DNA of 64,000 nt from assembly GCA_026075535.2 (NCBI GenBank), contig AP026545.1, positions 2,170,001 through 2,234,000 of the forward strand. Direction: 5' to 3'. The notes beneath the pieces were generated by a model, which made no database searches, was not told the DNA's origin, and saw nothing but the letters and a program-made list of their open reading frames with translations. Source of the DNA: Tricholoma matsutake (Eukaryota; Basidiomycota; Agaricomycetes; Agaricales; Tricholomataceae). A program made the position numbers and the translations under genes. How positions within the stretch are numbered: the first letter of the stretch is position 1; each line of letters begins with the position of its first letter. Below are positions 10,446 through 62,469 of this stretch, piece after piece.

Positions 10446-10446
10446 A

Positions 10447-14777: not shown

Positions 14778-14790
14778 TTTTTTTTTTTTT

Positions 14791-17026: not shown

Positions 17027-17029
17027 ATG

Positions 17030-18296: not shown

Positions 18297-18298
18297 TT
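18283..18298. repeat. Target-site duplication of TL3 (16 bp; second copy 24756-24771)
   Basis: AGTCTGTCCCTCATTT occurs before the poly(T) and after the TL3 5' end. It covers the start of TL7 ORF2. The last T residues are ambiguous with the tail. Confidence 0.95.
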
Positions 18299-18311
18299 TT
18301 TTTTTTTTTTT

Positions 18312-18835
18312 GGATCAAAAATTTATAACGCGGCGCCCGGTCGCAGTCCGCGGTAGAGACGTACAAGCAGAGTACACTACGCCCAGCCCAAGTCCTCCTC
18401 CTGCTAATCTTCGCACCAACCACCTGGATAACTGCGATGACCACTAAGGGGGCCCCCTTTATCGAGTAAACGGACTTGCCAGTGGTGGCGTACCGACAAC
18501 CCGGACTCGACGACGTCGTGTTCCCCGATCCCTACGGGTATGAGTGCAAGATTTAGGGGAAACTGCCGCCCCGATATGAGCCTCTCAGCTCGGAAAGGAA
18601 AGCGTGGTCGACTGAGATCGTCGCAACGCATAACCGACAGCGGATCTGAAAGCGCTCAGGCGCCTCCCCGAACCGGTACCTAGGTTCGTGTCCCCCCTCC
18701 CTGACAGTCGCTCCTGAACACGGGTGGGCCCCCTTTATGAGGGTTAACGGACTCATCTGGTGCCCCACGGCCACCCCGACATACCGATAACACTAGCTAG
18801 AACCAGACGAGGGTCATACGCCCTGCGCGCACAAC
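18312..18835 (-). other. TL3 3' UTR
   Basis: Terminal stem 18329-18333 / 18348-18352 next to the tail, and two copies of the GGGCCCCCTTTAT...CGGACT module at ~18450 and ~18727. No ORF. Confidence 0.8.
18329..18352 (-). other. 3'-terminal stem-loop of TL RNA
   Basis: A perfect 5-bp stem CGCGG/CCGCG encloses a 14-nt loop (sense ACTGCGACCGGGCG), ending ~17 nt before poly(A). The same stem and loop pattern is in every TL and PE 3' end here, a plausible RT recognition element. Confidence 0.7.
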
Positions 18836-21800
18836 CTATCCTGGATCCCACGCAAGTGAGTTGAACGATCCTAGTGCAGGATTGTTGTCCATGAATTCGT
18901 TGAAGCCTTCGACAGAGTCTGGGCTTGCACGAGTTTCTTTGCGATCCACCTTGGGGCAGACGCGTAGTAGATGGTCTCGAGTTTGAATCTCGGGACCAAG
19001 ACACCAACATTGGTATTCCCCGTCGAGGGATAAACGTTGACGATACTCCCCTATAGGAGCATGGCCAGTGATCATGCGAGTTGAACGGGAAGTCAGCGTA
19101 GTGTTGCTCCCCATTACTTTCAGCCAAGGCCCACCTTTGTGAGTCGAGGGTAATACTGGTTTTCCACCAACTCCTTTGAGTTGGTAGAAGTGTCGTCCAC
19201 GGTACGCAGGATCTGCGAACCGAGTGTGCCAATCCTTGCAAACGGCCTTTTCGACCTGGTTTTTAAGGTAATCTAGAGACGTCCGCGGGTGTCTGCCCAC
19301 GGAGATCTTGGTAGATGTAGCTACATCGTGAGCCATCTTATGTACGTTCCACTCGAACTTCGAGGGGACGTGCCAGAATGTAACGTTCCTCTCCTCGTCT
19401 CCGGATAGCCAGGGACGGAGGGAGCGGCAAGCGTCCAGAGCAAAGACTTGCTCAGAGCGTGGTTTAGGATCAGTTAGGGACTCAATGCCCGTAGTAGAAT
19501 CCGAGAATATCACCAACTTTTTGCACCCTCTGCTGCAAGCAGCCGAGACGCCCAGTTGGAGAGCAAAGAGTTTGACTTCTGGGGGGGTTCTCCTCCCAGA
19601 AGCAGAGACAACGCGATCGACCTGTTCTCCCTGTCCGAAGACCAGGGCACAGGCGACAGCCTGAAATTTGGCATCTGTGGGCACCGAAGCGTCCACTGCA
19701 ACGACCAGAGTGTCTTCCTCGCCCTGGGCAGACGCCCAGGCCTTGTCGAGGTCACTTCTGTAAGAATTCCTCGCTCCATCCTCCTTAGAGGTGAGGCGAT
19801 GAGAGGAGAAGCGAGTGGGGAATAGATCCTTCACTCTGTTTCCAGGTGTGTTTTCTTCCCCAAAGGGATCGAATTCATCGCCTGGTACTAAGGCCAAGGC
19901 TGCAGCCGAAGCAACAGACGGCCCTTGCAAGGTTAGTGTGTCGAGCACGTTCCCTCCCCAGAGTCCAAGCTCATGAGAGTGGGTGGTGCCGACGTGATTA
20001 GGCCCTAAGATCGCTCTTAGGGGGTGTGATGGGGCCAATAGGGGGGTTCTGAATACCCCCCTATCGACTAAGCGACGCAGTAACAGCTGCATAGGCAGCA
20101 GTCCCGCGATACTTTCAAGGCCACCGATTGGGGTGGTTCTGAATGCACCGAGGATCCAACGTGCAGCGATGGACTGCACTTGGGCCAACGTTTTGATAAC
20201 ACCTTTGACGCGAGCGCCTTTGAAGTGCCATAATCTGAGTCCATATGTCATAATAGGTACGACGCACGAACGGTATAGTAGGCGTTTCTGCATAGGGGAG
20301 AGCCCTCTGACAGAGTTGCCGAGCATTCCCATCGCCCTCGCAGTGGTGAGGGCTTTGGTGGAGTAAAATCGCGTATGCTCCTTGAAGGAGAGCTTACGGT
20401 CGAAGAAGAATCCAAGGTACCTCCAGGTGACCTTGGGTTTGAGAGGGGTGTTGCCCGTGTAGGGGGCAAAGCCAAGATCAATAGGCAGGGGGGTGAACCT
20501 CCTCGCCCTTGAGAAGTGGAATATTTCGGACTTGTCATGTTCGAGGACAAGCCCGAGGGAGGTAAATGCCTGGAAAATCCAGCCATACGCGTTTTTGAGG
20601 AGGGGGAGGTTATCCTCCAACTGTGGAGAGCGGGCGATGAGGGTGCCATCGTCTACGTAGGACATGAGATCGACATCCCTGCCGACCTCGCTTCTTCTGA
20701 AGAGTTTCATGATAGGCGTCAGGTATAACGCCGATAGGACAGGGGACAAGGCAGAGCCTTGACCCACCCCCACGTCGGCTGCAAAGGAGCCAGACGAGAA
20801 AGCGTTCCATTTGTAGGTCGTTCTGCGACCGACAAGGTATGAGCGGAAGAAGTTCACTACTTGCGCAGGAAACCCCGACCGAGAGATGATCTCCAATAGA
20901 ACCTGGTGGTTCAAGGAGGGAAAGAATTGAGCGATGTCGAAAGCGACAACGCTCGTTTTGAGTCCCTTGGCCCATCCTGCTCTGACCAGGTGGGTAAGGT
21001 AGATACCTGCATCCTCAGTGGAACGCTGGGCGACGCCTCCAAACTGGTTTTGTTCGAAAGCCTCGTGTGCGACACCGTCGAATTGAAGTCGCCTTGACAA
21101 CATCTTTTCGACTAGCTTGCCCAGAGTGTTCAGAAGCACAATGGGCCTGAACGACTTAGGGGTAGAGTAGTTGGGCTTCCCTGGTTTCGGGATAATTACC
21201 GACAGGGACTCCTTAAAGTGATCTGGCCAGTGGCCAGCGGTGATGCACGCCTCAGCAATGCGGGTGATGAGCCCTGCCACTTCCGGGTTGCTACACCAGT
21301 GTTTTAGGTGCGACCACGTAACATGATCGGGACCTGGAGCGGAACGGGAAGAACACGCGTTTAGCGCTTCTTTCATTTCCGTAACGGAGAACGAGATCCA
21401 GGTCCTTTCAGGCACCGGATCAAGCCCATCAAGAATGCTCAGATCGACTGCTCGATCTGATGCGGCGTTGTAGGACCCATCCAGGGCAGCCCAGAGAGAG
21501 TCCAGATCGTTACACGGTTCTCCCCGATAGGAGATCGCCTCGTACGACGGGAGGTTGCGTTGACGAGTCCAGGACATTAGGTCCCAGGGTCGTCTATTCA
21601 TCGTAGCCACCTCTTGGATACGGTCGTCGAAGAAGTCACGCTTTGCATGTCGCATGACCTTCCTGTAAAGCTTCCAGTCCCCCTCATCACGAGAGGCTCT
21701 GTAAGCGTCTAGAGCACCACTGCACTCGTCTGTCCACCAACCCTTGGACGACTTGCCGAGGCGAGATTCCTTGGCATGGTTTTCCCATGCCTTGTTTAAG

Positions 21801-22705
21801 ATCGCTGATATCGCCGAAACGACCTCATCGATCTCTGCCGAAGTATTTCCGTGCCAATTTAGCCACGGATTTAAAGCGGAGGAGACCGCCTCCCGATAGG
21901 ATGCTTCCTCCTCGGATCCTTTTTTGATGGACCACTTGGTGACCGGAACCAGAGATCCCGGGCCAGGCAGCACTAACGTCAAAGGAGCGTGGTCAGACGT
22001 TCCCCTGGCTTCAGGTACGATCTCGCAGTACAGTACAAATCTAAGATCTGTAGGTACGAACATCAGGTCGATCACCGTGGGGTGAAGGCCCTGTTGAGGG
22101 GGGAAGTGGGTAGGGCCCTCCACTACTGGTAGGGCTCTAGTCAGGCCTAATGCCGTAGCCGTTTCCACTAAGTGGTCAGCGTGAATTGAGTGCTCAGGCC
22201 CCTGGGGATCCCAGGATGCGTGTCTCACGTTAAAGTCGCCACACATGAAGTGTAGGCGTGGGATCGTCATGACATTCTCAAAGAGGAGCGTAATGGCGGA
22301 GTGTTGGCTATCCGAGTATACGTTAGCGAGTAGCATGACGTCCTCCCCTATTCCCAGTGAGAACAAGAGGATGTCACGATCGTCGATCAGATCTCGTCTG
22401 AGACCTGGTCTTAGATTAGCGATGCTGTTTGCAAAATAGACAGCAACGCGTGGGGGGGAATCAATACCCGAGGGGCGCACTAACGTTCCCCAGTTTGGGC
22501 TCATTGGTGCGCCTATAACTTCTTCCCCTTCCCTGTTGTGGGCAGAGGGGGCGTATCTTATTAGTCGCCAAGGAGGCTCTTGGATAAAAAGCAAGTCGTA
22601 ATCATCTACGAAGTCTGCCAGTAGCGAGTCCATGTAACCCCAATTCCGATTTACATTCTGACTAAATATTCGTAACTGTGGGGTAGATCTAAGCCTGTCC
22701 CTCAT
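18836..22705 (-). CDS. TL3 ORF2: endonuclease/reverse transcriptase/RNase H with mutated RNase H
   Basis: 1289 aa, the full family length. APE-like endonuclease at 1-240 (QN 16-17, QEPPW 42-46, GDFN 156-159, SDH 237-239). RT at ~440-800 (Asp590 in FDIAQFF, YVDD 683-686). RNase H at ~1000-1130 (Asp1005, Asp1069, Asp1127). C-terminal C-x-C-x9-H-x4-C at 1233-1250. Residue 1045, Glu in the other copies (VELFAL), is Lys, from a CpG transition at ~19571; by alignment logic this is the catalytic Glu of RNase H. RT and endonuclease should work, and second-strand or RNA removal may not. The ATG abuts the ORF1 stop. Confidence 0.95.
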   Translation of the reverse strand: MRDRLRSTPQLRIFSQNVNRNWGYMDSLLADFVDDYDLLFIQEPPWRLIRYAPSAHNREGEEVIGAPMSPNWGTLVRPSGIDSPPRVAVYFANSIANLRPGLRRDLIDDRDILLFSLGIGEDVMLLANVYSDSQHSAITLLFENVMTIPRLHFMCGDFNVRHASWDPQGPEHSIHADHLVETATALGLTRALPVVEGPTHFPPQQGLHPTVIDLMFVPTDLRFVLYCEIVPEARGTSDHAPLTLVLPGPGSLVPVTKWSIKKGSEEEASYREAVSSALNPWLNWHGNTSAEIDEVVSAISAILNKAWENHAKESRLGKSSKGWWTDECSGALDAYRASRDEGDWKLYRKVMRHAKRDFFDDRIQEVATMNRRPWDLMSWTRQRNLPSYEAISYRGEPCNDLDSLWAALDGSYNAASDRAVDLSILDGLDPVPERTWISFSVTEMKEALNACSSRSAPGPDHVTWSHLKHWCSNPEVAGLITRIAEACITAGHWPDHFKESLSVIIPKPGKPNYSTPKSFRPIVLLNTLGKLVEKMLSRRLQFDGVAHEAFEQNQFGGVAQRSTEDAGIYLTHLVRAGWAKGLKTSVVAFDIAQFFPSLNHQVLLEIISRSGFPAQVVNFFRSYLVGRRTTYKWNAFSSGSFAADVGVGQGSALSPVLSALYLTPIMKLFRRSEVGRDVDLMSYVDDGTLIARSPQLEDNLPLLKNAYGWIFQAFTSLGLVLEHDKSEIFHFSRARRFTPLPIDLGFAPYTGNTPLKPKVTWRYLGFFFDRKLSFKEHTRFYSTKALTTARAMGMLGNSVRGLSPMQKRLLYRSCVVPIMTYGLRLWHFKGARVKGVIKTLAQVQSIAARWILGAFRTTPIGGLESIAGLLPMQLLLRRLVDRGVFRTPLLAPSHPLRAILGPNHVGTTHSHELGLWGGNVLDTLTLQGPSVASAAALALVPGDEFDPFGEENTPGNRVKDLFPTRFSSHRLTSKEDGARNSYRSDLDKAWASAQGEEDTLVVAVDASVPTDAKFQAVACALVFGQGEQVDRVVSASGRRTPPEVKLFALQLGVSAACSRGCKKLVIFSDSTTGIESLTDPKPRSEQVFALDACRSLRPWLSGDEERNVTFWHVPSKFEWNVHKMAHDVATSTKISVGRHPRTSLDYLKNQVEKAVCKDWHTRFADPAYRGRHFYQLKGVGGKPVLPSTHKGGPWLKVMGSNTTLTSRSTRMITGHAPIGEYRQRLSLDGEYQCWCLGPEIQTRDHLLRVCPKVDRKETRASPDSVEGFNEFMDNNPALGSFNSLAWDPG

Positions 22706-24628
22706 TTACGTTCGGCCACCGCGTCCTGCGGGATGGTAAGTGGGAGGGGAGCGAGAATTGCGTTTCGCACTCACCTCGTCGTAGCGAGCTTTGATCCAAT
22801 CACGGTCAAAGCGATGTCGCCAAAAGTTACACCGACGATCGTCGGATGCATGATTTTTCCGGCAGTTTATACACCTAGCCGGGTGTGGACAGGCTGCCCC
22901 CTCTGGGGTAGCTGGAATGGGAGGGTTCGCCTTGGCGTTACCCTTGCAACACCCTGCGAGGGCACGGTGGTGCTCCTTGCGGTGTGGGCCTGCACAAACC
23001 GGGCATTTGGTCTGTGGAGCTCTGCATGCTTGAGTGGGGTGACCCCACTTCCAGCACCGTTGGCAGATAGGCATCCCGGGGTTCGCCCTGGCAGCTCTAA
23101 TGTGGGCGACGTAGCGTCCAAATTGGACGCCTCGACCGATAAGAGCTTTAGCTCGTGCACCGCTGACAGAGTCAGCAATGTTAAGATAGACGGTGCACGT
23201 ATCCGACATTTTCGAATCACGTACGACCCGGGGGGGGACTTGTAACACTGCGAGGTCCGATATACCGGACTTCCCCAGGTGTGCAATGACGACGTCAGGC
23301 GTAAGAGCCTTGTCGTTAGCGACGAATGGCACATCGACCAGCTTAAGGTACGACGTGGAAGTGGGTAGCGCTGCATCTACTTGCAGTGCGAAAGGAAACG
23401 CCTTGTGGGCCGCCTCCTTGAAGCAACGAAGGTCCTCCTCGGAGGCCACGACGTCAGTAGCTACTGATAGGTTACCAGCATGCATCGAAGCGGATTGGGC
23501 CACTAGTTTAGAGTGGTGCAATCCGAGGGTGACTCGGACATGATCCAAGAAGTCTGCAGGGTTCGTTTCCGCCCCGAGGGAGGGACGAACGTGTACCAGG
23601 ACCTGTCGTCTCGACGGTCCATGGACAGTAGGCGATGGCTTTGCAGCCTTCGGTTTAGAGGGGCCCACGTGCTGCTGTATGTCAGCCAGCTTGTCGGTTG
23701 GAAGTTCAGGGAAGGCCTTGGCAAGTCGCACAAGGCCGTCCATGGAAGTGTTAGGTGCTCGCCCTCCGGGGAAGCGAGCAACCTGAGCGAAGGTCCTCCT
23801 GCCCGAAGGCCTGGTGGACCAGTTCACGGGGGGAGGCGGTCCTCGACCCCATGACGACGAGACACCCCCTGCTGGGGGTTTAGGAAGAGGTCGAGCCCCT
23901 TTCGGGCCTCGGGTCCTCGCTGATTTGTGAGGGGGGGGGCGTTGCCCATCCCATCCCTCCAGATACTCCGTCATTGGGACGTCGTTAGGATCGTTAGTGA
24001 CAGTGCCCGACCTAGGTCGTTTACTGTTCCCAGCAATCCTGTCTATAGCGTTCCGGAGCGTGGCGCTTCCAGAATTACGATCGATACCGGCCTCGGCCGC
24101 TGCTGCCAGCACCGAGCCCAGTTGTTCAGCTATGAGCTGCCGTTCTTCAGCAGTCGGTCGTTTGGATCCCGTCCTGTTCAGGACAACTCGGAATCCAGTA
24201 GCGTACTCACCCAAGTCACTGGCGAAGGTCTGGGGTCCACTCCAGTCATCGCTCGTCATCTCCGTATCTTGTATGACGTGGGTAGAGAGGTTATCGGCCA
24301 CTTCATCAGCCCACGAAGCGGGTGTCGAAGGGGTAGCCGGAGGTGCAGGAGACGCAGTTGCATCCCTGGAAGATAGCGCTGGCACGCTGAATCGCTGTGC
24401 TCGCGGAGTGACAGTGCCCGCCCCATAGGGGGAGGGGGTTGGAGAGCCTCTTTGGGTCCTGTGGGGGCCCACTGAGGGAACGTTCTGTGTGGATCTGCGG
24501 CTCGAAGAGAGCCGCAGGGAATCAATGGGGTCGTCGCCAGGAGTTCTGGGCGTACCGGATCTAGAGGGTCCCCCCTCGTCCATCGCCTCACCCGATCTCC
24601 CCCTACTTCTAGTATACAAATCAGACAT
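22706..24628 (-). CDS. TL3 ORF1: gag-like protein
   Basis: 640 aa, intact, with three zinc knuckles at ~522-600. It is almost identical to TL4 ORF1, including shared private changes (VPMTEYLEG, SGRRTFAQ). One N-terminal difference (MSDL versus MSDS) is another CpG change. An open frame continues upstream through the 5' UTR into target-site sequence from TL7 and picks up a MRDRL start, but this is an insertion artefact. The real start is the ATG at 24628. Confidence 0.93.
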   Translation of the reverse strand: MSDLYTRSRGRSGEAMDEGGPSRSGTPRTPGDDPIDSLRLSSSRRSTQNVPSVGPHRTQRGSPTPSPYGAGTVTPRAQRFSVPALSSRDATASPAPPATPSTPASWADEVADNLSTHVIQDTEMTSDDWSGPQTFASDLGEYATGFRVVLNRTGSKRPTAEERQLIAEQLGSVLAAAAEAGIDRNSGSATLRNAIDRIAGNSKRPRSGTVTNDPNDVPMTEYLEGWDGQRPPPHKSARTRGPKGARPLPKPPAGGVSSSWGRGPPPPVNWSTRPSGRRTFAQVARFPGGRAPNTSMDGLVRLAKAFPELPTDKLADIQQHVGPSKPKAAKPSPTVHGPSRRQVLVHVRPSLGAETNPADFLDHVRVTLGLHHSKLVAQSASMHAGNLSVATDVVASEEDLRCFKEAAHKAFPFALQVDAALPTSTSYLKLVDVPFVANDKALTPDVVIAHLGKSGISDLAVLQVPPRVVRDSKMSDTCTVYLNIADSVSGARAKALIGRGVQFGRYVAHIRAARANPGMPICQRCWKWGHPTQACRAPQTKCPVCAGPHRKEHHRALAGCCKGNAKANPPIPATPEGAACPHPARCINCRKNHASDDRRCNFWRHRFDRDWIKARYDEVSAKRNSRSPPTYHPAGRGGRT

Positions 24629-24769
24629 GCGTTGGTAAGACGCTGGTTGTACCGGATCGCTGAGATCGTGGACGGATTGAGCTGCAAAAGTTGAAAACGG
24701 TGTCGACGAAGATTTTTGTGGCTGTGCACGTCGCGGTAAGAAGACAAGAAGCGTGAGTCTGTCCCTCAT

Positions 24770-28464: not shown

Positions 28465-28613
28465 CTATCCTGGATCCCACGCGAGTGAGTTGAACGACCC
28501 TAGTGCAGGGTTATTGTCCATAAATTCAGTGAAGCCCTCGACAGAGTCTGGACTTGCACGAGTCTCTTTGCGATCTACCTTGGGGCAGACGCGTAATAAG
28601 TGGTCTCGAGTTT
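28465..28613 (-). pseudogene. TL5 ORF2, last ~46 codons
   Basis: The extreme C-terminus of ORF2, starting inside the CCHC motif (HLLRVC segment) and ending at the common LAWDPG stop. It is separated from the rest of the gene by TL4. Confidence 0.9.
28599..28613. repeat. Target-site duplication of TL4 (15 bp; second copy 37314-37328)
   Basis: AGTGGTCTCGAGTTT precedes the TL4 tail and follows its 5' end. It comes from TL5 ORF2 near the CCHC. Confidence 0.95.
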
Positions 28614-28628
28614 TTTTTTTTTTTTTTT

Positions 28629-29152
28629 GGATCAAAAATTTATAACGCGGCGCCCGGTCGCAGTCCGCGGTAGAGACGTACAAGCAGAGTACACTACGCC
28701 CAGCCCAAGTCCTCCTCCTGCTAATCTTCGCACCAACCACCTGGATAACTGCGATGACCACTAAGGGGGCCCCCTTTATCGAGTAAACGGACTTGCCAGT
28801 GGTGGCGTACCGACAACCCGGACTCGACGACGTCGTGTTCCCCGATCCCTACGGGTATGAGTGCAAGATTTAGGGGAAACTGCCGCCCCGATATGAGCCT
28901 CTCAGCTCGGAAAGGAAAGCGTGGTCGACTGAGATCGTCGCAACGCATAACCGACAGCGGATCTGAAAGCGCTCAGGCGCCTCCCCGAACCGGTACCTAG
29001 GTTCGTGTCCCCCCTCCCTGACAGTCGCTCCTGAACACGGGTGGGCCCCCTTTATGAGGGTTAACGGACTCGTCTGGTGCCCCACGGCCACCCCGACATA
29101 CCGATAACACTAGCTAGAACCAGACGAGGGTCATACGCCCTGCGCGCACAAC
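28629..29152 (-). other. TL4 3' UTR
   Basis: Nearly identical to the TL3 3' UTR. One difference is CpG in TL4 and CpA in TL3 (~29070 versus ~18756). It has the terminal stem-loop and the duplicated module. Confidence 0.8.
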
Positions 29153-31039
29153 CTATCCTGGATCCCACGCAAGTGAGTTGAACGATCCTAGTGCAGGATT
29201 GTTGTCCATGAATTCGTTGAAGCCTTCGACAGAGTCTGGGCTTGCACGAGTTTCTTTGCGATCCACCTTGGGGCAGACGCGTAGTAGATGGTCTCGAGTT
29301 TGAATCTCGGGACCAAGACACCAACATTGGTATTCCCCGTCGAGGGATAAACGTTGACGATACTCCCCTATAGGAGCATGGCCAGTGATCATGCGAGTTG
29401 AACGGGAAGTCAGCGTAGTGTTGCTCCCCATTACTTTCAGCCAAGGCCCACCCTTGTGAGTCGAGGGTAATACTGGTTTTCCACCAACTCCTTTGAGTTG
29501 GTAGAAGTGTCGTCCACGGTACGCAGGATCTGCGAACCGAGTGTGCCAATCCTTGCAAACGGCCTTTTCGACCTGGTTTTTAAGGTAATCTAGAGACGTC
29601 CGCGGGTGTCTGCCCACGGAGATCTTGGTAGATGTAGCTACATCGTGAGCCATCTTATGTACGTTCCACTCGAACTTCGAGGGGACGTGCCAGAATGTAA
29701 CGTTCCTCTCCTCGTCTCCGGATAGCCAGGGACGGAGGGAGCGGCAAGCGTCCAGAGCAAAGACTTGCTCAGAGCGTGGTTTAGGATCAGTTAGGGACTC
29801 AATGCCCGTAGTAGAATCCGAGAATATCACCAACTTTTTGCACCCTCTGCTGCAAGCAGCCGAGACGCCCAGTTGGAGAGCAAAGAGTTCGACTTCTGGG
29901 GGGGTTCTCCTCCCAGAAGCAGAGACAACGCGATCGACCTGTTCTCCCTGTCCGAAGACCAGGGCACAGGCGACAGCCTGAAATTTGGCATCTGTGGGCA
30001 CCGAAGCGTCCACTGCAACGACCAGAGTGTCTTCCTCGCCCTGGGCAGACGCCCAGGCCTTGTCGAGGTCACTTCTGTAAGAATTCCTCGCTCCATCCTC
30101 CTTAGAGGTGAGGCGATGAGAGGAGAAGCGAGTGGGGAATAGATCCTTCACTCTGTTTCCAGGTGTGTTTTCTTCCCCAAAGGGGTCGAATTCATCGCCT
30201 GGTACTAAGGCCAAGGCTGCAGCCGAAGCGACAGACGGCCCTTGCAAGGTTAGTGTGTCGAGCACGTTCCCTCCCCAGAGTCCAAGCTCATGAGAGTGGG
30301 TGGTGCCGACGTGATTAGGCCCTAAGATCGCTCTTAGGGGGTGTGATGGGGCCAATAGGGGGGTTCTGAATACCCCCCTATCGACTAAGCGACGCAGTAA
30401 CAGCTGCATAGGCAGCAGTCCCGCGATACTTTCAAGGCCACCGATTGGGGTGGTTCTGAATGCACCGAGGATCCAACGTGCAGCGATGGACTGCACTTGG
30501 GCCAACGTTTTGATAACACCTTTGACGCGAGCGCCTTTGAAGTGCCATAATCTGAGTCCATATGTCATAATAGGTACGACGCACGAACGGTATAGTAGGC
30601 GTTTCTGCATAGGGGAGAGCCCTCTGACAGAGTTGCCGAGCATTCCCATCGCCCTCGCAGTGGTGAGGGCTTTGGTGGAGTAAAATCGCGTATGCTCCTT
30701 GAAGGAGAGCTTACGGTCGAAGAAGAATCCAAGGTACCTCCAGGTGACCTTGGGTTTGAGAGGGGTGTTGCCCGTGTAGGGGGCAAAGCCAAGATCAATA
30801 GGCAGGGGGGTGAACCTCCTCGCCCTTGAGAAGTGGAATATTTCGGACTTGTCATGTTCGAGGACAAGCCCGAGGGAGGTAAATGCCTGGAAAATCCAGC
30901 CATACGCGTTTTTGAGGAGGGGGAGGTTATCCTCCAACTGTGGAGAGCGGGCGATGAGGGTGCCATCGTCTACGTAGGACATGAGATCGACATCCCTGCC
31001 GACCTCGCTTCTTCTGAAGAGTTTCATGATAGGCGTCAG
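29153..31039 (-). pseudogene. TL4 ORF2, C-terminal portion
   Basis: About 628 codons from residue ~662 (just before KLFRRSE) to the stop. It contains YVDD, the complete RNase H set (Glu retained, unlike TL3) and the CCHC. It is split from the N-terminal 666 codons by PEb. Reading upstream into PEb gives a short artificial extension only. Confidence 0.93.
31026..31039. repeat. Target-site duplication of PEb (14 bp; second copy 33266-33279)
   Basis: ATGATAGGCGTCAG lies before the PEb 5' end and directly after its poly(A). It is TL4 RT coding sequence. Confidence 0.96.
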
Positions 31040-31820
31040 CACATCGCTCCTTGACTTGTTACAACCACCATAAATAGTGGTAAACACCTCTGCTCAATGT
31101 TGCACGCGACGTCGACACTTCAATTTTTGTCCGATTTTCGATCGGACTTCACCATCACGAACGCTCTCGGCGTCTCCAGGCCTGCCCTGATTTGCTAAGA
31201 GATCTGTCCATCCGATCTCCGGGGATGTCTCGGTCATTGTTTCCAACAGTGACTGCTATCTGTCTTGTTCCCCTTGGCTTCGAGGATCCTGGCTAGGTGA
31301 GTGATGTCTATGAAAGAGTAGTCTGGGTCCCTATGGGGGCTTAGAGTGGGTGTGGGATGCCTGCTTCAACGCTCGCCCAAGTAGAAGCGCTCGTTTAGCT
31401 GGGGGAGGTCTGGCTTAGGGGGAAGGACGTTTTTACTGGACTGCTGGCCATCTGGGAGGCTCCCAGCCTCCATGCTCTGTGAGTTTCTATTACTAGAGAC
31501 ATGCTACACTGACTACCCGTTGGAATACACCATCGTTAAAAGGGGCCGGGCGATGGTGCCCCCTGACAGCTAGGTCAATGCTCTGGTGGCCGCTACTCAC
31601 CACCAACCCTCTACCTCCGGTGCTCACTCTTCTAGGGTGTTATGACCCGGGTTCAGTCTTCTCCCACTGGGTGACAGGATGTGCGGCCTGTCCCCCCCTC
31701 GGAGCATTTGGAGGCAGTATCGGGTGGACCCGGAATAGAGATAAGGGACCAACCGTTATCGATGGCACGCTACGTATCTTGATTTCTACTATCACCTACT
31801 AGCATTAACTTCCCCTCTCA
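31040..31820 (+). other. PEb 5' UTR with three hairpins
   Basis: Long leader without a gene. Perfect inverted repeats: ACCAC/GTGGT at 31064-31081 (loop includes CATAAATA), GTCCGAT/ATCGGAC at 31129-31147, and CACCATCG/CGATGGTG at 31528-31558 with loop TTAAAAGGGGCCGGG. They recur in the other PE copies. The leader must also carry the promoter, but no box can be named with confidence. Confidence 0.75.
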
Positions 31821-32630
31821 ATGCCTAAACGGCGAACCAGAGCCCAAACACCACGCTGGGGTCTACACGACCCCTCCCTGATTACGGGCGACATCTATGA
31901 TGATGACGTCCAAGACTACGACACCCGGTACGATCAAGACGATCCGGATGTAGCTACTGCCCTACGGGCAGTTAGAGATCTATGGGCTGGAGAAGACCTC
32001 TCCGACCCTGAAGATGACGAGGACTCTCTTGCTATGCAAGAGGCCCTCAATTACGCCGAGAGCAGCCCCAAGCTGGCCTCGAGGCAAACGATAGACCGTG
32101 TGCTGTGGGCGCAGGACGTCCATGTCGCACATAAACGATGGACTCGCAGTCTTGAACGCGAGGACATGTATTCACAGGAGCTCGGCATGGCCGAGCTCTT
32201 CTATCCGGAGGCATCCCCTGCCCCATTACCGCCTTTGCCCCCCATCCCTGAGTTGGTGGAGGATGAAGTGCCGCTATCTGTGAATGACAGGTTGGAAATC
32301 GAAGCCACCTCTCATGCCATGCTACACCAACTCGACGCGATGACCATGTTCATTGGTACCGTCCGTACATCCGCCGTTCCCCCTGCAGAGAGGAACGCAT
32401 GGCGCCAAATGGCCTGGGAGTTATTCACGACCACCTGGCGACTGTCTGAGACAATGTCGGCGGAACTAGCAGCCGTTCCGACACCTCTCGACCTCACGTC
32501 TCCGGCAGCCTTCCGGGCTTCCTACGCGGCGGTGCACACCGCTCAATCAGAGCTTCAATCTGGGGAACCCTCGTCCCCAGCACGGCGCCGTCGTCCTCGA
32601 GGTCCTCGTGGACAGCAGCGCCGCAACTAG
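31821..32630 (+). CDS. PEb ORF: unknown 269-aa partner-element protein
   Basis: 269 aa; no family recognised. It is not a copy of TL ORF1: there are no zinc knuckles and no shared motif. Order: basic start (MPKRRTRAQ), acidic region ~25-75 with PEDDED, charged helical stretch, QELGMAELFYPE (~120), Pro-rich PAPLPPLPPIPELVEDE, a conserved block ~160-225 (AMTMFIGTVRTSAVPP, ERNAWRQMAWELFTTTWRLSE), then a very basic tail. The mix of acidic and basic segments suggests an RNA- or protein-binding accessory factor; that is inference. The ATG follows a pyrimidine-rich leader and there is no upstream in-frame extension. The frame is also open in PEc, PEa and PEf, and until interrupted in PEd and PEe. 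Confidence 0.85.
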   Translation: MPKRRTRAQTPRWGLHDPSLITGDIYDDDVQDYDTRYDQDDPDVATALRAVRDLWAGEDLSDPEDDEDSLAMQEALNYAESSPKLASRQTIDRVLWAQDVHVAHKRWTRSLEREDMYSQELGMAELFYPEASPAPLPPLPPIPELVEDEVPLSVNDRLEIEATSHAMLHQLDAMTMFIGTVRTSAVPPAERNAWRQMAWELFTTTWRLSETMSAELAAVPTPLDLTSPAAFRASYAAVHTAQSELQSGEPSSPARRRRPRGPRGQQRRN

Positions 32631-33248
32631 TACAGGGGGCTATCCCCCTCTACATTCACGGCCACCAAGTAACTGGTGGCCACTATCGGGATGGTGACAT
32701 GGTGTCGCTTCCCTATACCTTCCCCCCACTGCGGGGGGGACGATGTCATCGAGTGCGTGCACATAGGTGCATTTGCTCGAGGGGGGTCTCGGCCCCCTAC
32801 TTACGGCGGTCACGGTGAATAACCAGGTGAACAACCACCCGCCTTGTTACTGTCACTCGTGCACAACACGGTGACGGTCCACCTCATTCGTCTGGGGTGG
32901 TCAATCCTCGTTGGCTGGAAAAACGCAGACGGTTATTCCTCCCGCAAGGGGGGATTTACGGTGAATTAACACTGCTGCGCCTGGTCTGGCCTCGGTCGGA
33001 CATGTGGCTGGGGGACCGTTTGCTCCAGGGGGCGATCTAATGGCTAACTTCGGGAGGGGGGGCGCCCCCTCCAGATTATTGCCTTTCCTGGCTGAGAGGC
33101 CAACGTCTGTGGAACTGCCCGCCTAAAGGTGGCTAAAACGGGGACCTGAGTGGGAGATGGGCGAGGGGAACGCGTAGATAAAGTAGTACCCGAGTTTGTA
33201 CCTTGCTCCGCGGACTGCGTTCGAGCCCCGCGTTATAAATTCTGATCC
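32631..33248 (+). other. PEb 3' UTR, structured
   Basis: Non-coding. Strong inverted repeats: AGGGGG/CCCCCT just after the stop, GGCCACCA/TGGTGGCC at 32660-32681, CCCCCC/GGGGGG around 32725, then the terminal hairpin at 33209-33232. PEa, PEc and PEb keep these despite sequence change. Confidence 0.75.
33209..33232 (+). other. 3'-terminal stem-loop shared with TL
   Basis: CGCGG/CCGCG with 14-nt loop ACTGCGTTCGAGCC. TL copies have ACTGCGAYCGGGCG in the same place. It lies ~17 nt from the poly(A) and is the best candidate for recognition by the TL reverse transcriptase. Confidence 0.72.
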
Positions 33249-33265
33249 AAAAAAAAAAAAAAAAA

Positions 33266-35262
33266 ATGATAGGCGTCAGGTATAACGCCGATAGGACAGG
33301 GGACAAGGCAGAGCCTTGACCCACCCCCACGTCGGCTGCAAAGGAGCCAGACGAGAAAGCGTTCCATTTGTAGGTCGTTCTGCGACCGACAAGGTATGAG
33401 CGGAAGAAGTTCACTACTTGCGCAGGGAACCCCGACCGAGAGATGATCTCCAATAGAACCTGGTGGTTCAAGGAGGGAAAGAATTGAGCGATGTCGAAAG
33501 CGACAACGCTCGTTTTGAGTCCCTTGGCCCATCCTGCTCTGACCAGGTGGGTAAGGTAGATACCTGCATCCTCAGTGGAACGCTGGGCGACGCCTCCAAA
33601 CTGGTTTTGTTCGAAAGCCTCGTGTGCGACACCGTCGAATTGAAGTCGCCTTGACAACATCTTTTCGACTAGCTTGCCCAGAGTGTTCAGAAGCACAATG
33701 GGCCTGAACGACTTAGGGGTAGAGTAGTTGGGCTTCCCTGGTTTCGGGATAATTACCGACAGGGACTCCTTAAAGTGATCTGGCCAGTGGCCAGCGGTGA
33801 TGCACGCCTCAGCAATGCGGGTGATGAGCCCTGCCACTTCCGGGTTGCTACACCAGTGTTTTAGGTGCGACCACGTAACATGATCGGGACCTGGAGCGGA
33901 ACGGGAAGAACACGCGTTTAGCGCTTCTTTCATTTCCGTAACGGAGAACGAGATCCAGGTCCTTTCAGGCACCGGATCAAGCCCATCAAGAATGCTCAGA
34001 TCGACTGCTCGATCTGATGCGGCGTTGTAGGACCCATCCAGGGCAGCCCAGAGAGAGTCCAGATCGTTACACGGTTCTCCCCGATAGGAGATCGCCTCGT
34101 ACGACGGGAGGTTGCGTTGACGAGTCCAGGACATTAGGTCCCAGGGTCGTCTATTCATCGTAGCCACCTCTTGGATACGGTCGTCGAAGAAGTCACGCTT
34201 TGCATGTCGCATGACCTTCCTGTAAAGCTTCCAGTCCCCCTCATCACGAGAGGCTCTGTAAGCGTCTAGAGCACCACTGCACTCGTCTGTCCACCAACCC
34301 TTGGACGACTTGCCGAGGCGAGATTCCTTGGCATGGTTTTCCCATGCCTTGTTTAAGATCGCTGATATCGCCGAAACGACCTCATCGATCTCTGCCGAAG
34401 TATTTCCGTGCCAATTTAGCCACGGATTTAAAGCGGAGGAGACCGCCTCCCGATAGGATGCTTCCTCCTCGGATCCTTTTTTGATGGACCACTTGGTGAC
34501 CGGAACCAGAGATCCCGGGCCAGGCAGCACTAACGTCAAAGGAGCGTGGTCAGACGTTCCCCTGGCTTCAGGTACGATCTCGCAGTACAGTACAAATCTA
34601 AGATCTGTAGGTACGAACATCAGGTCGATCACCGTGGGGTGAAGGCCCTGTTGAGGGGGGAAGTGGGTAGGGCCCTCCACTACTGGTAGGGCTCTAGTCA
34701 GGCCTAATGCCGTAGCCGTTTCCACTAAGTGGTCAGCGTGAATTGAGTGCTCAGGCCCCTGGGGATCCCAGGATGCGTGTCTCACGTTAAAGTCGCCACA
34801 CATGAAGTGTAGGCGTGGGATCGTCATGACATTCTCAAAGAGGAGCGTAATGGCGGAGTGTTGGCTATCCGAGTATACGTTAGCGAGTAGCATGACGTCC
34901 TCCCCTATTCCCAGTGAGAACAAGAGGATGTCACGATCGTCGATCAGATCTCGTCTGAGACCTGGTCTTAGATTAGCGATGCTGTTTGCAAAATAGACAG
35001 CAACGCGTGGGGGGGAATCAATACCCGAGGGGCGCACTAACGTTCCCCAGTTTGGGCTCATTGGTGCGCCTATAACTTCTTCCCCTTCCCTGTTGTGGGC
35101 AGAGGGGGCGTATCTTATTAGTCGCCAAGGAGGCTCTTGGATAAAAAGCAAGTCGTAATCATCTACGAAGTCTGCCAGTAGCGAGTCCATGTAACCCCAA
35201 TTCCGATTTACATTCTGACTAAATATTCGTAACTGTGGGGTAGATCTAAGCCTGTCCCTCAT
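33266..35262 (-). pseudogene. TL4 ORF2, N-terminal portion (endonuclease and RT start)
   Basis: The first ~666 codons: the whole endonuclease (QN, QEPPW, GDFN, SDH), and RT through FDIAQFF and GVGQGSALSP up to LTPIM, where PEb interrupts just before the YVDD region. The frame runs on into PEb tail sequence, giving a chimeric C-terminus that includes Phe codons from the poly(T). The remainder is at 29153-31039. Confidence 0.93.
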
Positions 35263-37185
35263 TTACGTTCGGCCACCGCGTCCTGCGGGATGGTAAGTGG
35301 GAGGGGAGCGAGAATTGCGTTTCGCACTCACCTCGTCGTAGCGAGCTTTGATCCAATCACGGTCAAAGCGATGTCGCCAAAAGTTACACCGACGATCGTC
35401 GGATGCATGATTTTTCCGGCAGTTTATACACCTAGCCGGGTGTGGACAGGCTGCCCCCTCTGGGGTAGCTGGAATGGGAGGGTTCGCCTTGGCGTTACCC
35501 TTGCAACACCCTGCGAGGGCACGGTGGTGCTCCTTGCGGTGTGGGCCTGCACAAACCGGGCATTTGGTCTGTGGAGCTCTGCATGCTTGAGTGGGGTGAC
35601 CCCACTTCCAGCACCGTTGGCAGATAGGCATCCCGGGGTTCGCCCTGGCAGCTCTAATGTGGGCGACGTAGCGTCCAAATTGGACGCCTCGACCGATAAG
35701 AGCTTTAGCTCGTGCACCGCTGACAGAGTCAGCAATGTTAAGATAGACGGTGCACGTATCCGACATTTTCGAATCACGTACGACCCGGGGGGGGACTTGT
35801 AACACTGCGAGGTCCGATATACCGGACTTCCCCAGGTGTGCAATGACGACGTCAGGCGTAAGAGCCTTGTCGTTAGCGACGAATGGCACATCGACCAGCT
35901 TAAGGTACGACGTGGAAGTGGGTAGCGCTGCATCTACTTGCAGTGCGAAAGGAAACGCCTTGTGGGCCGCCTCCTTGAAGCAACGAAGGTCCTCCTCGGA
36001 GGCCACGACGTCAGTAGCTACTGATAGGTTACCAGCATGCATCGAAGCGGATTGGGCCACTAGTTTAGAGTGGTGCAATCCGAGGGTGACTCGGACATGA
36101 TCCAAGAAGTCTGCAGGGTTCGTTTCCGCCCCGAGGGAGGGACGAACGTGTACCAGGACCTGTCGTCTCGACGGTCCATGGACAGTAGGCGATGGCTTTG
36201 CAGCCTTCGGTTTAGAGGGGCCCACGTGCTGCTGTATGTCAGCCAGCTTGTCGGTTGGAAGTTCAGGGAAGGCCTTGGCAAGTCGCACAAGGCCGTCCAT
36301 GGAAGTGTTAGGTGCTCGCCCTCCGGGGAAGCGAGCAACCTGAGCGAAGGTCCTCCTGCCCGAAGGCCTGGTGGACCAGTTCACGGGGGGAGGCGGTCCT
36401 CGACCCCATGACGACGAGACACCCCCTGCTGGGGGTTTAGGAAGAGGTCGAGCCCCTTTCGGGCCTCGGGTCCTCGCTGATTTGTGAGGGGGGGGGCGTT
36501 GCCCATCCCATCCCTCCAGATACTCCGTCATTGGGACGTCGTTAGGATCGTTAGTGACAGTGCCCGACCTAGGTCGTTTACTGTTCCCAGCAATCCTGTC
36601 TATAGCGTTCCGGAGCGTGGCGCTTCCAGAATTACGATCGATACCGGCCTCGGCCGCTGCTGCCAGCACCGAGCCCAGTTGTTCAGCTATGAGCTGCCGT
36701 TCTTCAGCAGTCGGTCGTTTGGATCCCGTCCTGTTCAGGACAACTCGGAATCCAGTAGCGTACTCACCCAAGTCACTGGCGAAGGTCTGGGGTCCACTCC
36801 AGTCATCGCTCGTCATCTCCGTATCTTGTATGACGTGGGTAGAGAGGTTATCGGCCACTTCATCAGCCCACGAAGCGGGTGTCGAAGGGGTAGCCGGAGG
36901 TGCAGGAGACGCAGTTGCATCCCTGGAAGATAGCGCTGGCACGCTGAATCGCTGTGCTCGCGGAGTGACAGTGCCCGCCCCATAGGGGGAGGGGGTTGGA
37001 GAGCCTCTTTGGGTCCTGTGGGGGCCCACTGAGGGAACGTTCTGTGTGGATCTGCGGCTCGAAGAGAGCCGCAGGGAATCAATGGGGTCGTCGCCAGGAG
37101 TTCTGGGCGTACCGGATCTAGAGGGTCCCCCCTCGTCCATCGCCTCACCCGATCTCCCCCTACTTCTAGTATACGAATCAGACAT
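35263..37185 (-). CDS. TL4 ORF1: gag-like protein
   Basis: 640 aa, intact, near-identical to TL3 ORF1, with three zinc knuckles at ~522-600. The start is the MSDS ATG at 37185. Its 5' UTR has no in-frame stop, and the host TL5 ORF2 enters in the same frame. One uninterrupted frame of 1928 codons therefore runs from the TL5 ORF2 start (41049) to this stop. The fusion is a by-product of insertion; ORF1 alone is the ancestral gene. Confidence 0.93.
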   Translation of the reverse strand: MSDSYTRSRGRSGEAMDEGGPSRSGTPRTPGDDPIDSLRLSSSRRSTQNVPSVGPHRTQRGSPTPSPYGAGTVTPRAQRFSVPALSSRDATASPAPPATPSTPASWADEVADNLSTHVIQDTEMTSDDWSGPQTFASDLGEYATGFRVVLNRTGSKRPTAEERQLIAEQLGSVLAAAAEAGIDRNSGSATLRNAIDRIAGNSKRPRSGTVTNDPNDVPMTEYLEGWDGQRPPPHKSARTRGPKGARPLPKPPAGGVSSSWGRGPPPPVNWSTRPSGRRTFAQVARFPGGRAPNTSMDGLVRLAKAFPELPTDKLADIQQHVGPSKPKAAKPSPTVHGPSRRQVLVHVRPSLGAETNPADFLDHVRVTLGLHHSKLVAQSASMHAGNLSVATDVVASEEDLRCFKEAAHKAFPFALQVDAALPTSTSYLKLVDVPFVANDKALTPDVVIAHLGKSGISDLAVLQVPPRVVRDSKMSDTCTVYLNIADSVSGARAKALIGRGVQFGRYVAHIRAARANPGMPICQRCWKWGHPTQACRAPQTKCPVCAGPHRKEHHRALAGCCKGNAKANPPIPATPEGAACPHPARCINCRKNHASDDRRCNFWRHRFDRDWIKARYDEVSAKRNSRSPPTYHPAGRGGRT

Positions 37186-37313
37186 GCGTTGGTAAGACGC
37201 TGGTTGTACCGGATCGCTGAGATCGTGGACGGATTGAGCTGCAAAAGTTGAAAACGGTGTCGACGAAGATTTTTGTGGCTGTGCACGTCGCGGTAAGAAG
37301 ACAAGAAGCGATG

Positions 37314-40300
37314 AGTGGTCTCGAGTTTGTATCTCGGGACCAAGGCACCAGCATTGGTATTCCCCGTCGAGGGATAGGCGTTGACGATACTCCCCTATAG
37401 GAGCATGGCCAGTGATCATACGAGTTGAACGAGAAGTCAGCGTAGTGCTGCTCCCCATATCTTTCAGCCAAGGCCCACCTTTGTGTGTCGAGGGTAAGAC
37501 TGGTTTTCCACCGACTCCTTTGAGTTGGTAGAAGTGTCGTCCACGGTACGCAGGGTCTGCGAACCGGGTGTGCCAATCCTTACAAACGGCCTTTTCGACC
37601 TGATTTCTAAGGTAGTCTAGAGATGTCCGCGGGTGTCTGCCCACGGAGATCTTGGTAGATGTAGCTACATCGTGAGCCATCTTGTGAACATTCCACTCGA
37701 ATTTCGAGGGGACGTGCCAGAATGTAACGTTCCTCTCCTCGTCCCCAGCTAGCCAGGGACGCAGGGAGCGACAAGCGTCCAGAGCAAAGATTTGCTCAGA
37801 GCGTGGTTTGGGATCAATTAGGGACTCAATGCCCGTAGTGGAGTCCGAGAATATCACCAACTTTTTGCACCCTCTGCTGCACGCAGCCGAGACGCCCAGT
37901 TGGAGAGCAAAGAGTTCGACTTCTGGGGGGGTTCTCCTTCCAGAAGCCGAGACAACGCGATCGACCTGTTCTCCCTGCCCGAAGACAAGAGCACAGGCGA
38001 CAGCCTGAAATTTAGCATCTGTGGGCACTGAGGCGTCCACTGCAACGACGAGAGTGTCGTCCTCGACCAGGGCAGAAGCCCAGGCCTTATCGAGGTCACT
38101 CCTGTAAGAGTTCCTCGCTCCATCCTCCTTAGAGGTGAGGCGATGAGAGGAAAAGTGAGTGGGGAACAGGTCCTTCACTCTGTTTCCAGGTGTGTTTTCT
38201 TCCCCGAAGGGGTCGAACTCATCGCCTGGTACCAGGGCCAGAGCTGCAGCCGAAGCGACAGATGGACCTTGCAGGTTAAGTGTGTCAAGCACGTTCCCCC
38301 CCCAGAGTCCAAGCTCATGAGAGTGGGTGGAGCCGACGTGATTAGGCCCTAGGATCGCTCTTAGGGGGTGTGAAGGAGCCAATAAAGGGGTCCTGAATAC
38401 CCCTCTGTCGACTAGACGTCGCAGTAACAGCTGCATGGGCAGCAGTCCCGCGATACTTTCCAGGCCCCCGATTGGGGTGGTTCTGAAGGCACCGAGGATC
38501 CAACGTGCAGCGATAGACTGCACTTGGGCCAACGTCTTGATGACACCTTTGACGCGAGCGCCTTTGAAGTGCCACAGTCTGAGTCCATACGTCATAATTG
38601 GTACGACGCATGAACGGTATAGAAGGCGCTTCTGCATAGGGGTCAGCCCTCTGACAGAATTGCCGAGCATTCCCATCGCCCTCGCCGTGGTAAGGGCTTT
38701 GGTGGAATAGAACCGCGTGTGCTCTTTGAAAGAGAGTTTGCGGTCGAAGAAAAACCCAAGGTACCTCCAGGTAACCTTGGGTTTGAGGGGGGTGTTGCCC
38801 GTGTAGGGGGCGAATCCGAGATCAATGGGCAGGGGAGTGAAACTCCTCGCCCTTGAAAAATGAAATATTTCGGACTTGTCGTGTTCGAGGACGAGTCCGA
38901 GGGAGGTGAACGCCTGGAATATCCAGCCGTACGCTTTTTTGAGCAAGGGGAGGTTATCCTCCAGCTGTGGAGAGCGGGCGATGAGAGTTCCATCGTCCAC
39001 ATATGACATGAGATCGACATCTCTGCCGATTTCGCTCCTTCTGAAGAGCTTCATAATGGGCGTTAGGTATAACGCCGATAAGACAGGGGACAAAGCAGAG
39101 CCTTGACCCACTCCCACATCGGCTGCAAAGGAGCCAGATGAGAAAGCGTTCCATTTGTAGGTCGTTTTGCGACCGACAAGGTATGAACGGAAGAAGTTCA
39201 CTACTTGCGCAGGGAACCCCGACCGAGAGATGATCTCCAACAGAACTTGGTGGTTCAAGGAGGGGAAAAATTGAGCGATGTCGAAAGCGACAACACTCGT
39301 TTTGAGTCCCTTGGCCCATCCTGCCCTGACCAGGTGGGTGAGGTAGATACCTGCATCCTCAGTGGAACGCTGGGCGACGCCTCCGAATTGGTTTTGCTCG
39401 AAGGCCTCGTGTGCGACACCGTCAAACTGAAGTCGCCTAGACAACATCTTTTCGACTAATTTGCCCAGAGTGTTCAGAAGCACAATGGGCCTGAACGACT
39501 TAGGGGTAGAGTAATTAGGTTTCCCTGGTTTCGGGATAATAACCGACAGGGACTCCTTAAAGTGATCTGGCCAGTGGCCAGCGGTGATGCACGCCTCAGC
39601 AATGCGGGTGATGAGCCCTGCCACTTCTGGGTTGCTACACCAGTGTTTTAGGTGCGACCACGTAACATGATCGGGACCTGGAGCGGAACGGGAAGAACAC
39701 GCGTTTAGCGCTTCCTTCATTTCCGTAACGGAGAACGAGATCCAGGCCCTTTCAGGCACCGGATCAAGTTCATCGAGGATACTCAGATCGACTACTCGAT
39801 CTGAGGCAGCGTTATAGGACCCGTCCAGGGCAGCCCAAAGGGAGTCCAGATCATTACAAGGTTCTCCCCGGTAGGAGATTGCCTCGTATGACGGGAGGTT
39901 ACGTTGACGAGTCCAGGACATCAAATCCCAGGGTCGCCTGTTCATCGTAGCCACTTCCTGGATACGGTCGTCGAAAAAGTCGCGCTTTGCGTGTCGCATG
40001 ACTTTCCTATAAAGCTTCCAGTCTCCCTCGTCTCGAGAGGCTCTGTAAGCGTCTAAGGCACCACTGCATTCGTCTGTCCACCAGCCCTTGGACGACTTGC
40101 CGAGGCGGGATTCCTTGGCATGGTTTTCCCATGCCTTGTTTAAGATCGTTGATATCGCCGAAACGACGTCATCGATCTCTGCCGAAGTATTTCCGTGCCA
40201 GTCTAGCCACGGAATTAAAGCGGAGGAAACAGCATCACGGTAAGATGCTTCCTCCTCGGATCCTTTTTTGATGGACCACTTGGTAACCGGGACCAAAGAT

Positions 40301-62377: not shown

Positions 62378-62393
62378 CAGGAGGCCCTCAATT

Positions 62394-62466
62394 ACGCTGA
62401 GAGCAGCCCTAAGCTAGCCTCGAGGCAAACGATCGACCGTGTGCTGTGGGCGCAGGACGTCCATAT
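62394..62466 (+). pseudogene. PEe ORF, continuation (~24 codons)
   Basis: Codons for YAESSPKLASRQTIDRVLWA and the next few residues, in the same frame as 55676-55916 once TL8 is removed. Cut by the PEf 5' end. Confidence 0.85.
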
Positions 62467-62469
62467 CGT

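What the first reader, a model, noticed from the sequence alone, without database searches (positions are those of the whole stretch)
31040..33265. A protein-coding, RT-less partner family (PE) that appears to parasitise the TL retrotransposon
PEb is a 2.2-kb unit with its own 269-codon ORF, poly(A) and a perfect 14-bp target duplication, but no endonuclease or RT. Its 3' ~45 nt match the TL tail and its 5' ~18 nt resemble the TL 5' end. Non-autonomous LINE partners are usually non-coding SINEs, or keep a piece of the parent's ORF. Here the ORF resembles neither TL ORF. At least seven copies are in this window.
Basis: partly seen in the sequence, partly recalled or inferred. Interest (0 to 1): 0.9.

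Follow-up and report, generated by a model that had tools for sequence, protein, structure and literature searches.

The report
Coding passenger of a centromeric LINE
In the matsutake mushroom, sampled stretches of a presumed centromere consist almost wholly of a jumping gene (a LINE) and a smaller element that seems to copy itself with borrowed enzymes yet carries a conserved protein gene of its own.

Summary
PEb is a 2.2-kb retroposed unit with an intact 269-codon ORF, poly(A), a 14-bp target duplication and no recognisable endonuclease or RT; it sits inside TL's ORF2. The genome is Tricholoma matsutake TMA_r1.1, and the window lies in a published GC-rich, LINE-rich putative centromere. In a 200-kb sample of C9, TL plus PE make up 98% of the DNA. 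Exact searches count 434 PE-type and 236 TL-type tails genome-wide.

TL supplying endonuclease and RT is the best reading: shared 3' 55-71 nt, shared 5' terminus, similar TSD length, cross-predictive target sites, same chromosomal clusters. The PE ORF is under purifying selection (dN/dS 0.20-0.44) and shows no detectable homology to either TL ORF. A derivative without a working ORF (PEc, 214 exact marker hits) also moves, so the protein is not strictly needed in cis.

"Parasitise" is untested; a HeT-A-like two-way arrangement is not excluded. Precedents are MoTeR2 and HeT-A. The PEa protein is already in databases as 'CzcA-like', perhaps from marY2N. I call it a new variant of a known kind.

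The parts
31040..33265 (+). PEb element, complete, inserted into TL ORF2
31026..31039 (.). 5' copy of the 14-bp target-site duplication
33266..33279 (.). 3' copy of the target-site duplication (first A ambiguous with the poly(A))
31045..31062 (+). 5'-terminal 18 nt shared with TL; preceded by 5 variable nt
   Evidence: variable 5' extra bases
31821..32630 (+). PEb ORF, 269 aa: acidic N-terminal part, conserved middle, Arg-rich C-terminus
33196..33248 (+). 3' tail homologous to the TL tail
33249..33265 (+). poly(A)
28613..31039 (-). 3' part of the TL copy interrupted by PEb
33266..37315 (-). 5' part of the same TL copy
18296..24757 (-). full-length TL used as reference (ORF1 22706-24628, ORF2 18836-22705 with endonuclease, RT, and an RNase H-like match just under its Pfam cut-off)
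14777..17030 (-). PEa element, complete; ORF 15407-16249, 98% identical to database 'CzcA-like protein' Q9C4A5
46731..48883 (-). PEb copy lacking its last ~70 nt, apparently cut by a TL insertion
48885..50417 (-). PEb copy, 5' part
50420..50644 (-). PE fragment
54895..55916 (+). PE copy, 5' part, split by a TL insertion (continues at 62378-62468)
62378..62468 (+). continuation of the PE copy at 54895
62469..64000 (+). PEb copy running out of the window
479..797 (+). PE fragment

Best explanation
PE is a family of coding but non-autonomous non-LTR retroelements that moves by target-primed reverse transcription with the endonuclease and RT of TL. TL's ORF2 protein probably recognises the shared 3' tail of PE RNA (inferred), nicks inside existing TL/PE DNA at the presumed centromeres, and copies PE there (the insertions are shown, the enzyme is inferred). 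PE is not passive: coding subfamilies keep their own 269-280-aa protein under purifying selection, so it most likely helps the RNA that encodes it, for instance as an RNA-binding, Gag-like packaging factor with an Arg-rich tail (role inferred, no assay and no usable fold). A derivative without a working ORF, PEc, rides on the same machinery, which gives three tiers: TL, coding PE, PEc.
For: 3' tail: the 65 poly(A)-bearing tails that a pattern found in the window plus 200 kb of C9 all belong to TL (24) or PE (41); homology 55-71 nt, 0 of 500 shuffles. TSDs: 46 of 73 5' ends pair with a TSD-bearing 3' end; without three duplicated loci 43 insertions remain, mean TSD 14.3 (22 coding-length PE), 15.6 (7 PEc), 14.6 (12 TL). 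A target matrix from 30 PE sites ranks 11 TL sites above C9 background that also starts with A (AUC 0.795, p 0.00036), and the reverse (AUC 0.773, p 1.2e-7); leaving out a target used by both: 0.783 and 0.747. That shared target is one TL and one PEc insertion into the same position of different TL copies. Same places: 360 listed PE, TL and tail hits form only 14 clusters spanning 4.1% of the genome. No Pfam RT in PE; TL ORF2 has EN and RT. Selection: dN/dS between subfamilies 0.24-0.44, pooled within subfamilies 0.20-0.26; fewer nonsynonymous changes than random, p 1.4e-13 (a), 1.6e-10 (b), 0.037 (d); 22 of 24 full-length uninterrupted coding-type copies have an intact ORF.
Against: PEc, with a frameshifted and deleted ORF, has TSD-bearing insertions (7) and 214 exact marker hits, so the PE protein is not needed in cis by all PE elements. 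The last 24 codons show dN/dS above 1 in 2 of 4 comparisons (3.99 and 1.13; very few changes). No RNA, protein or activity data. The tail shows no significant RNA fold (4 of 4 sequences tested). 5' homology is limited to the last 18 nt. The structure model failed (pLDDT 40). Only 11 TL target sites entered the motif test. The tail pattern was made from known tails, so a LINE with a more distant tail would be missed.
Confidence: 0.8

Rival explanations
1. Mutual dependence, like HeT-A and TART in flies: the PE protein also serves TL, for example in packaging or in bringing the complex to centromeric chromatin, while TL gives RT.
For: PE ORF under purifying selection; TL and PE share the same clusters; in Drosophila TART Gag needs the Gag of the pol-less HeT-A to reach telomeres (PMC5537684, passages).
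Against: TL-like ORF2 proteins occur in other Agaricales for which the same database gave no PE protein, so such LINEs can probably live without PE. TL has its own ORF1 with dN/dS 0.06-0.14. No data on a benefit to TL.
Confidence: 0.15
2. The ORF is a dispensable passenger; only the tail matters, and PE is simply a long SINE-like element.
For: PEc moves without a working ORF; between subfamilies the ORF is less alike than the 5' region.
Against: Purifying selection and intact ORFs in the coding subfamilies; no tRNA and no Rfam family reaching its cut-off.
Confidence: 0.07
3. PE is mobilised by a different LINE of this genome, not by TL.
For: Other LINEs were not surveyed genome-wide.
Against: In 264 kb the 65 tails found by pattern all belong to TL or PE; TSD length and target motif agree with TL.
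Confidence: 0.05
4. PE is a set of retrocopies of a host gene.
For: Poly(A), TSDs and a single ORF would fit.
Against: Defined 5' terminus and mostly complete lengths (35 of 41 PE 3' ends in C9 trace to a complete 5' end by a chaining script), conserved UTRs with swapped 5' modules, several subfamilies with their own recent copies; no host gene seen (only the best candidates were scored).
Confidence: 0.03

Closest known systems
MoTeR2 with MoTeR1 (Magnaporthe oryzae); PMC7367193, passages seen
   Same: A shorter partner that shares terminal sequences with an RT-bearing LINE and has unrelated sequence in place of the RT region; probably uses the partner's RT; confined to one chromosomal niche.
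   Different: MoTeR2 shares 860 bp at the 5' end and 77 bp at the 3' end and sits in telomeres; its 786-bp unique part has 'no obvious function'. MoTeR1 has a putative restriction-like endonuclease; TL has an Exo_endo_phos (APE-type) one. PE shares 18 nt at the 5' end, sits in presumed centromeres, and its ORF is under measured purifying selection.
HeT-A with TART and TAHRE (Drosophila telomeres); PMC5537684, passages seen
   Same: Encodes a conserved protein, lacks pol, probably uses a partner's RT, lives in one chromosomal niche with it.
   Different: HeT-A codes for a Gag; the TAHRE Gag closely resembles it. PE protein shows no detectable homology to TL ORF1. PE makes TSDs; HeT-A is thought to add to chromosome ends without nicking.
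marY2N (T. matsutake; Murata 2001, paper not seen; described second-hand in PMC10627285, passages)
   Same: LINE-like with poly(A), found in T. matsutake, concentrated in presumed centromeric regions of T. bakamatsutake. The database 'CzcA-like protein' Q9C4A5 is 98% identical to PEa and may be its ORF (inference).
   Different: Its nucleotide record AB047280 was not available here, so identity with PEa is not tested. The passages seen say nothing of an RT-bearing partner.
SINEs with LINE-derived tails (recalled)
   Same: 3' tail shared with a LINE; PEc, with no working ORF, comes closest.
   Different: Coding, 2.2 kb, no tRNA and no Rfam family at cut-off.

Membership tests
MoTeR2-type partner | 3' end shared with an RT-bearing LINE | tested here: met
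MoTeR2-type partner | Long shared 5' region (860 bp) | tested here: not met
   Only the terminal 18 nt agree
MoTeR2-type partner | Inserted in telomere repeats | tested here: not met
   In the window and C9 insertions lie in TL/PE DNA; one copy abuts a telomere at the end of C12
HeT-A-type element | Codes for a protein, lacks pol | tested here: met
HeT-A-type element | Protein is a Gag related to that of an RT-bearing partner | tested here: not met
   BLASTP, hhalign and shuffles against TL ORF1 all negative; profiles are shallow
SINE | Pol III promoter or head from a small RNA | tested here: not met
   Rfam on 31030-33270: 4 matches, all below their cut-offs; no tRNA in the window
SINE | No protein-coding capacity | tested here: not met
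   a, b and d subfamilies coding under selection; PEc alone would meet it
Deletion derivative of the parent LINE (HAL1-like, recalled) | Keeps part of a parental ORF | tested here: not met
Autonomous LINE | Endonuclease and RT domains | tested here: not met
   (Pfam only)
marY2N | Same nucleotide sequence as AB047280 | not testable with these tools
   Record not held; only the protein Q9C4A5 could be compared
Centromeric retroelement | Lies in CenH3 chromatin | not testable with these tools
   Position fits the GC-rich, LINE-rich regions that PMC10211490 proposes as centromeres (passages; one per chromosome, two on chromosome 1, as); no ChIP

The most novel reading that the evidence does not exclude
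TL and PE are a mutual, two-part system that builds and holds fungal centromeres: TL gives endonuclease and RT, the PE protein packages the RNAs or aims the complex at centromeric chromatin, and PEc exploits both. This would be a centromeric counterpart of HeT-A and TART, evolved separately with an unrelated protein.
Probability: 0.15. Interest if true: 0.88.

Novelty: new variant of a known kind. Interest (0 to 1): 0.64.

Why it matters
As far as I know (recall), non-autonomous LINE partners that keep a protein unrelated to the parent's are rare; MoTeR2 and HeT-A are the near cases. Here the protein is measurably under selection in a family of hundreds of copies, beside a derivative without a working ORF that serves as a natural control. 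It makes a testable question of what a retroelement without RT gains from a protein of its own. It also shows a presumed centromere made almost only of one LINE and its passengers, in a fungus with a complete assembly.

Tried and rejected
Homology of the PE protein to TL ORF1: a stretch looked alike by eye, but BLASTP, hhalign (probability 0.1%) and shuffles (10 to 228 of 300 shuffles reached the score over six comparisons) gave no support. I used 2 of 5 ORF1 rows in the shuffles; profiles are shallow.

Structure: AlphaFold2 with 10 rows gave pLDDT 40; I ran no fold search on it. PDB sequences: 3 matches, best E 0.66.

Tail as a conserved RNA fold: z-scores -0.02 to 1.74 in 4 sequences, no support.

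Longer 5' homology of TL and PE: not significant.

Literature: searches of the held library. marY2N appears in one paper. In what I saw of these listings and passages there was no RT-less TL partner, but the search terms were few and most subscription papers, including the 2001 marY2N paper, are not held. In a paper on Fusarium telomeric LINEs (PMC12857005, passages) the words MoTeR2 and non-autonomous do not occur.

Rows dropped and corrected: the dN/dS and ORF-intactness sample holds only PE copies that BLAST gave as one near-full segment (window 2, C9 22 coding-type); 8 PEc copies were read beside them. Interrupted copies were left out, and two broken PEd copies drop out of dN/dS. One search removed four insertions as duplicates; on recheck three were true duplicates and one was a real TL insertion that shares its target sequence with a PEc insertion. 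One search also sorted PEc by size, which put one internally deleted PEa (C9 offset 181168) among them. One search mends both and sets aside that PEa and one unclear nested copy (offset 134759) from the TSD means; I cite. The TL 5'-completeness count (5 of 18 in C9) is unreliable because deep nesting defeats the script.

Full report
WHERE IT LIES. The window is G000:C8:2170001-2234000 of a 161,040,721-base, 13-contig genome. The total equals the table of the telomere-to-telomere assembly of Tricholoma matsutake, and so do the two contig lengths that I saw (chr9 10,996,241; chr12 9,912,917) (PMC10211490, passages). That paper reports one GC-rich, LINE-rich, LTR-poor region per chromosome, two on chromosome 1, and suggests that these are centromeres. 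I pasted 360 listed hits (143 PEb protein, 140 PEa protein, 36 TL ORF2, 41 TL tail) into a script: they form 14 clusters, one per contig and two on C1, with a summed span of 6.58 Mb or 4.1% of the genome. Those searches score only the best candidates, so the counts are lower bounds. One of the 360, at C12:9911521, lies at the very end of C12 and joins its cluster only because the gap is under the 300-kb linking rule.

WHAT THE CLUSTERS ARE MADE OF. In the window 82.2% is TL and 17.7% PE; in C9 1.45-1.65 Mb 57.0% is TL, 41.0% PE and 2.0% matches neither reference. The largest such gap is 1.95 kb; about 0.8 kb in all is the segment that only PEc has. Elements are nested in one another in both orientations, with target duplications readable from the host coordinates. 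Exact pattern searches with whole-genome counts give 434 PE-type tails and 236 TL-type tails, none for the reversed control pattern; a joint, slightly different pattern gave 648. The two types are told apart by two bases that separate TL from PE tails in nearly all of the 65 tails. The PE-type count includes PEc. Only the first 100 places of each search are listed; by eye, 200 of those 200 lie within 50 kb of the clusters.

THE ELEMENT. Four subfamilies are seen: PEa (279-280 aa; a further variant of 278 aa), PEb (269-272), PEd (276) and PEc (1.86 kb). PEc has lost the middle of the ORF and is frameshifted, so it has no working PE ORF. Of full-length uninterrupted coding-type copies in the window and C9, the ORF is intact in 11 of 11 PEb, 6 of 6 PEa and 5 of 7 PEd. 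In the genome-wide PEb list 126 of 143 hits have no stop (tally of the list; biased to close relatives).

TL AS THE LIKELY DRIVER. (i) Tail: the 65 poly(A)-bearing tails found by pattern belong to TL or PE and the alignments of 55-71 nt beat all 500 shuffles. (ii) 5' terminus: CGCTYCTTGWCTTSTTAC in both, preceded by 0-6 variable bases, CAT being the commonest in both. (iii) TSD length: means 14.3, 15.6 and 14.6 for 22 coding-length PE, 7 PEc and 12 TL. (iv) Target sites: the first TSD base is A in 30 of 31 PE (all kinds) and 11 of 12 TL insertions; with that base left out of the score, each family's matrix ranks the other's sites above C9 background (AUC 0.795 and 0.773; without the one shared target 0.783 and 0.747). 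One TL and one PEc insertion hit the same 14-bp target, TL position 2282-2295, in different TL copies. (v) Co-localisation. None of these is a biochemical proof.

THE PROTEIN IS SELECTED. Nei-Gojobori dN/dS is 0.24-0.44 between subfamilies (0.27-0.31 between the two PEa variants), and pooled means within subfamilies are 0.26 (a, 6), 0.20 (b, 11) and 0.22 (d, 5). The last 24 codons are an exception in 2 of 4 comparisons (3.99 and 1.13), on very few changes. Against random change with transitions weighted 4:1, nonsynonymous changes are too few: 44 of 119 (a), 42 of 105 (b), 8 of 17 (d), expected about 0.70. TL as yardstick: ORF1 0.06-0.14 among differing pairs, ORF2 0.05 in the one pair tested (dN 0.017, dS 0.364). 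A star-tree simulation gives a 0.535 chance of no stop per PEb copy, against 11 of 11 seen (stops only, copies treated as independent). Selection on a multicopy element implies that a working ORF helps the copy that carries it. The 24-residue C-terminus holds 8-9 Arg/Lys; the first 117 residues hold 25-27 Asp/Glu (three proteins). A nucleic-acid-binding role is my inference.

WHAT SPEAKS AGAINST A SIMPLE STORY. PEc moves: 7 TSD-bearing insertions in C9, 214 exact marker hits genome-wide (of the first 100 listed, 99 lie within 50 kb of the clusters by eye), and one pair of full-length copies 99.95% alike at different flanks. So the protein is either supplied in trans or dispensable for PEc. The 5' thirds of PE are exchanged between subfamilies: a and d are 90-94% alike there but 47-71% alike in the two ORF halves, and two PEb copies carry a PEd-like N-terminus. 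Template switching or recombination would explain this; neither was tested.

ORIGIN AND SPREAD. The PE protein found 9 and then, with a profile and a laxer limit, 11 database proteins; the 9 with a name among the 11 are T. matsutake, and two come from unnamed ENA contigs. The TL ORF2 search in the same database gave 53 proteins including Cyclocybe, Candolleomyces, Psilocybe, Leucocoprinus and Tricholomella. So PE looks narrower than TL, within the limits of a word-based search. One hit, Q9C4A5 'CzcA-like protein' of T. matsutake, is 272 of 277 identical to PEa. marY2N is a T. matsutake LINE-like element, and marY2N-like sequence marks presumed centromeric regions in T. bakamatsutake (PMC10627285, passages). 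That Q9C4A5 is the marY2N ORF is my inference; I have not seen the 2001 paper or its record.

VERDICT. A real, coding, RT-less retroposon family with very recent copies (PEd pairs 99.8-99.96% alike) that, by the sequence tests made here, depends on a LINE living in the presumed centromeres. It works like MoTeR2 and HeT-A but is a member of neither: it lacks the long shared 5' region and telomeric site of the first and the Gag kinship of the second.

Noticed in passing
L035:2238-4416 (G000:C12:9910738-9912916): The end of chromosome 12 is a PEa copy cut at position 2050 and capped directly by 22 TTAGGG repeats, with a TL 3' end beside it; looks like a telomere healed onto TL/PE DNA.
   Followed up: partly
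window 22703-22708, 8396-8401, 44674-44679, 60326-60331 (-): TL ORF1 stop and ORF2 ATG abut with no spacing in these TL copies (ORF coordinates), which suggests coupled translation.
   Followed up: no
P0006, P0008: The database name 'CzcA-like protein' for PE proteins has no support here: no Pfam match for PEa and PEb at E up to 1; probably a misannotation that has spread.
   Followed up: partly
G000:C3:4489152-4489188: One PEc marker hit lies about 230 kb outside the C3 cluster; a possible insertion elsewhere.
   Followed up: no
L010:1449-3402: A 1.95-kb stretch inside the C9 cluster matches neither TL nor PE; unidentified.
   Followed up: no
C9 loci L009-L028: PE 5' regions are swapped between subfamilies, and some ORFs are chimeric between PEd and PEb.
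   Followed up: partly
window 10446-12613 and 60329-62380 (-): A second TL lineage, with ORF1 about 85% identical to the common one at the protein level.
   Followed up: no
L015:2108 (C9 offset 62108) and L022:6715 (C9 offset 136715): A TL and a PEc insertion used the same 14-bp target in two TL copies, a hint of preferred sites inside TL.
   Followed up: partly
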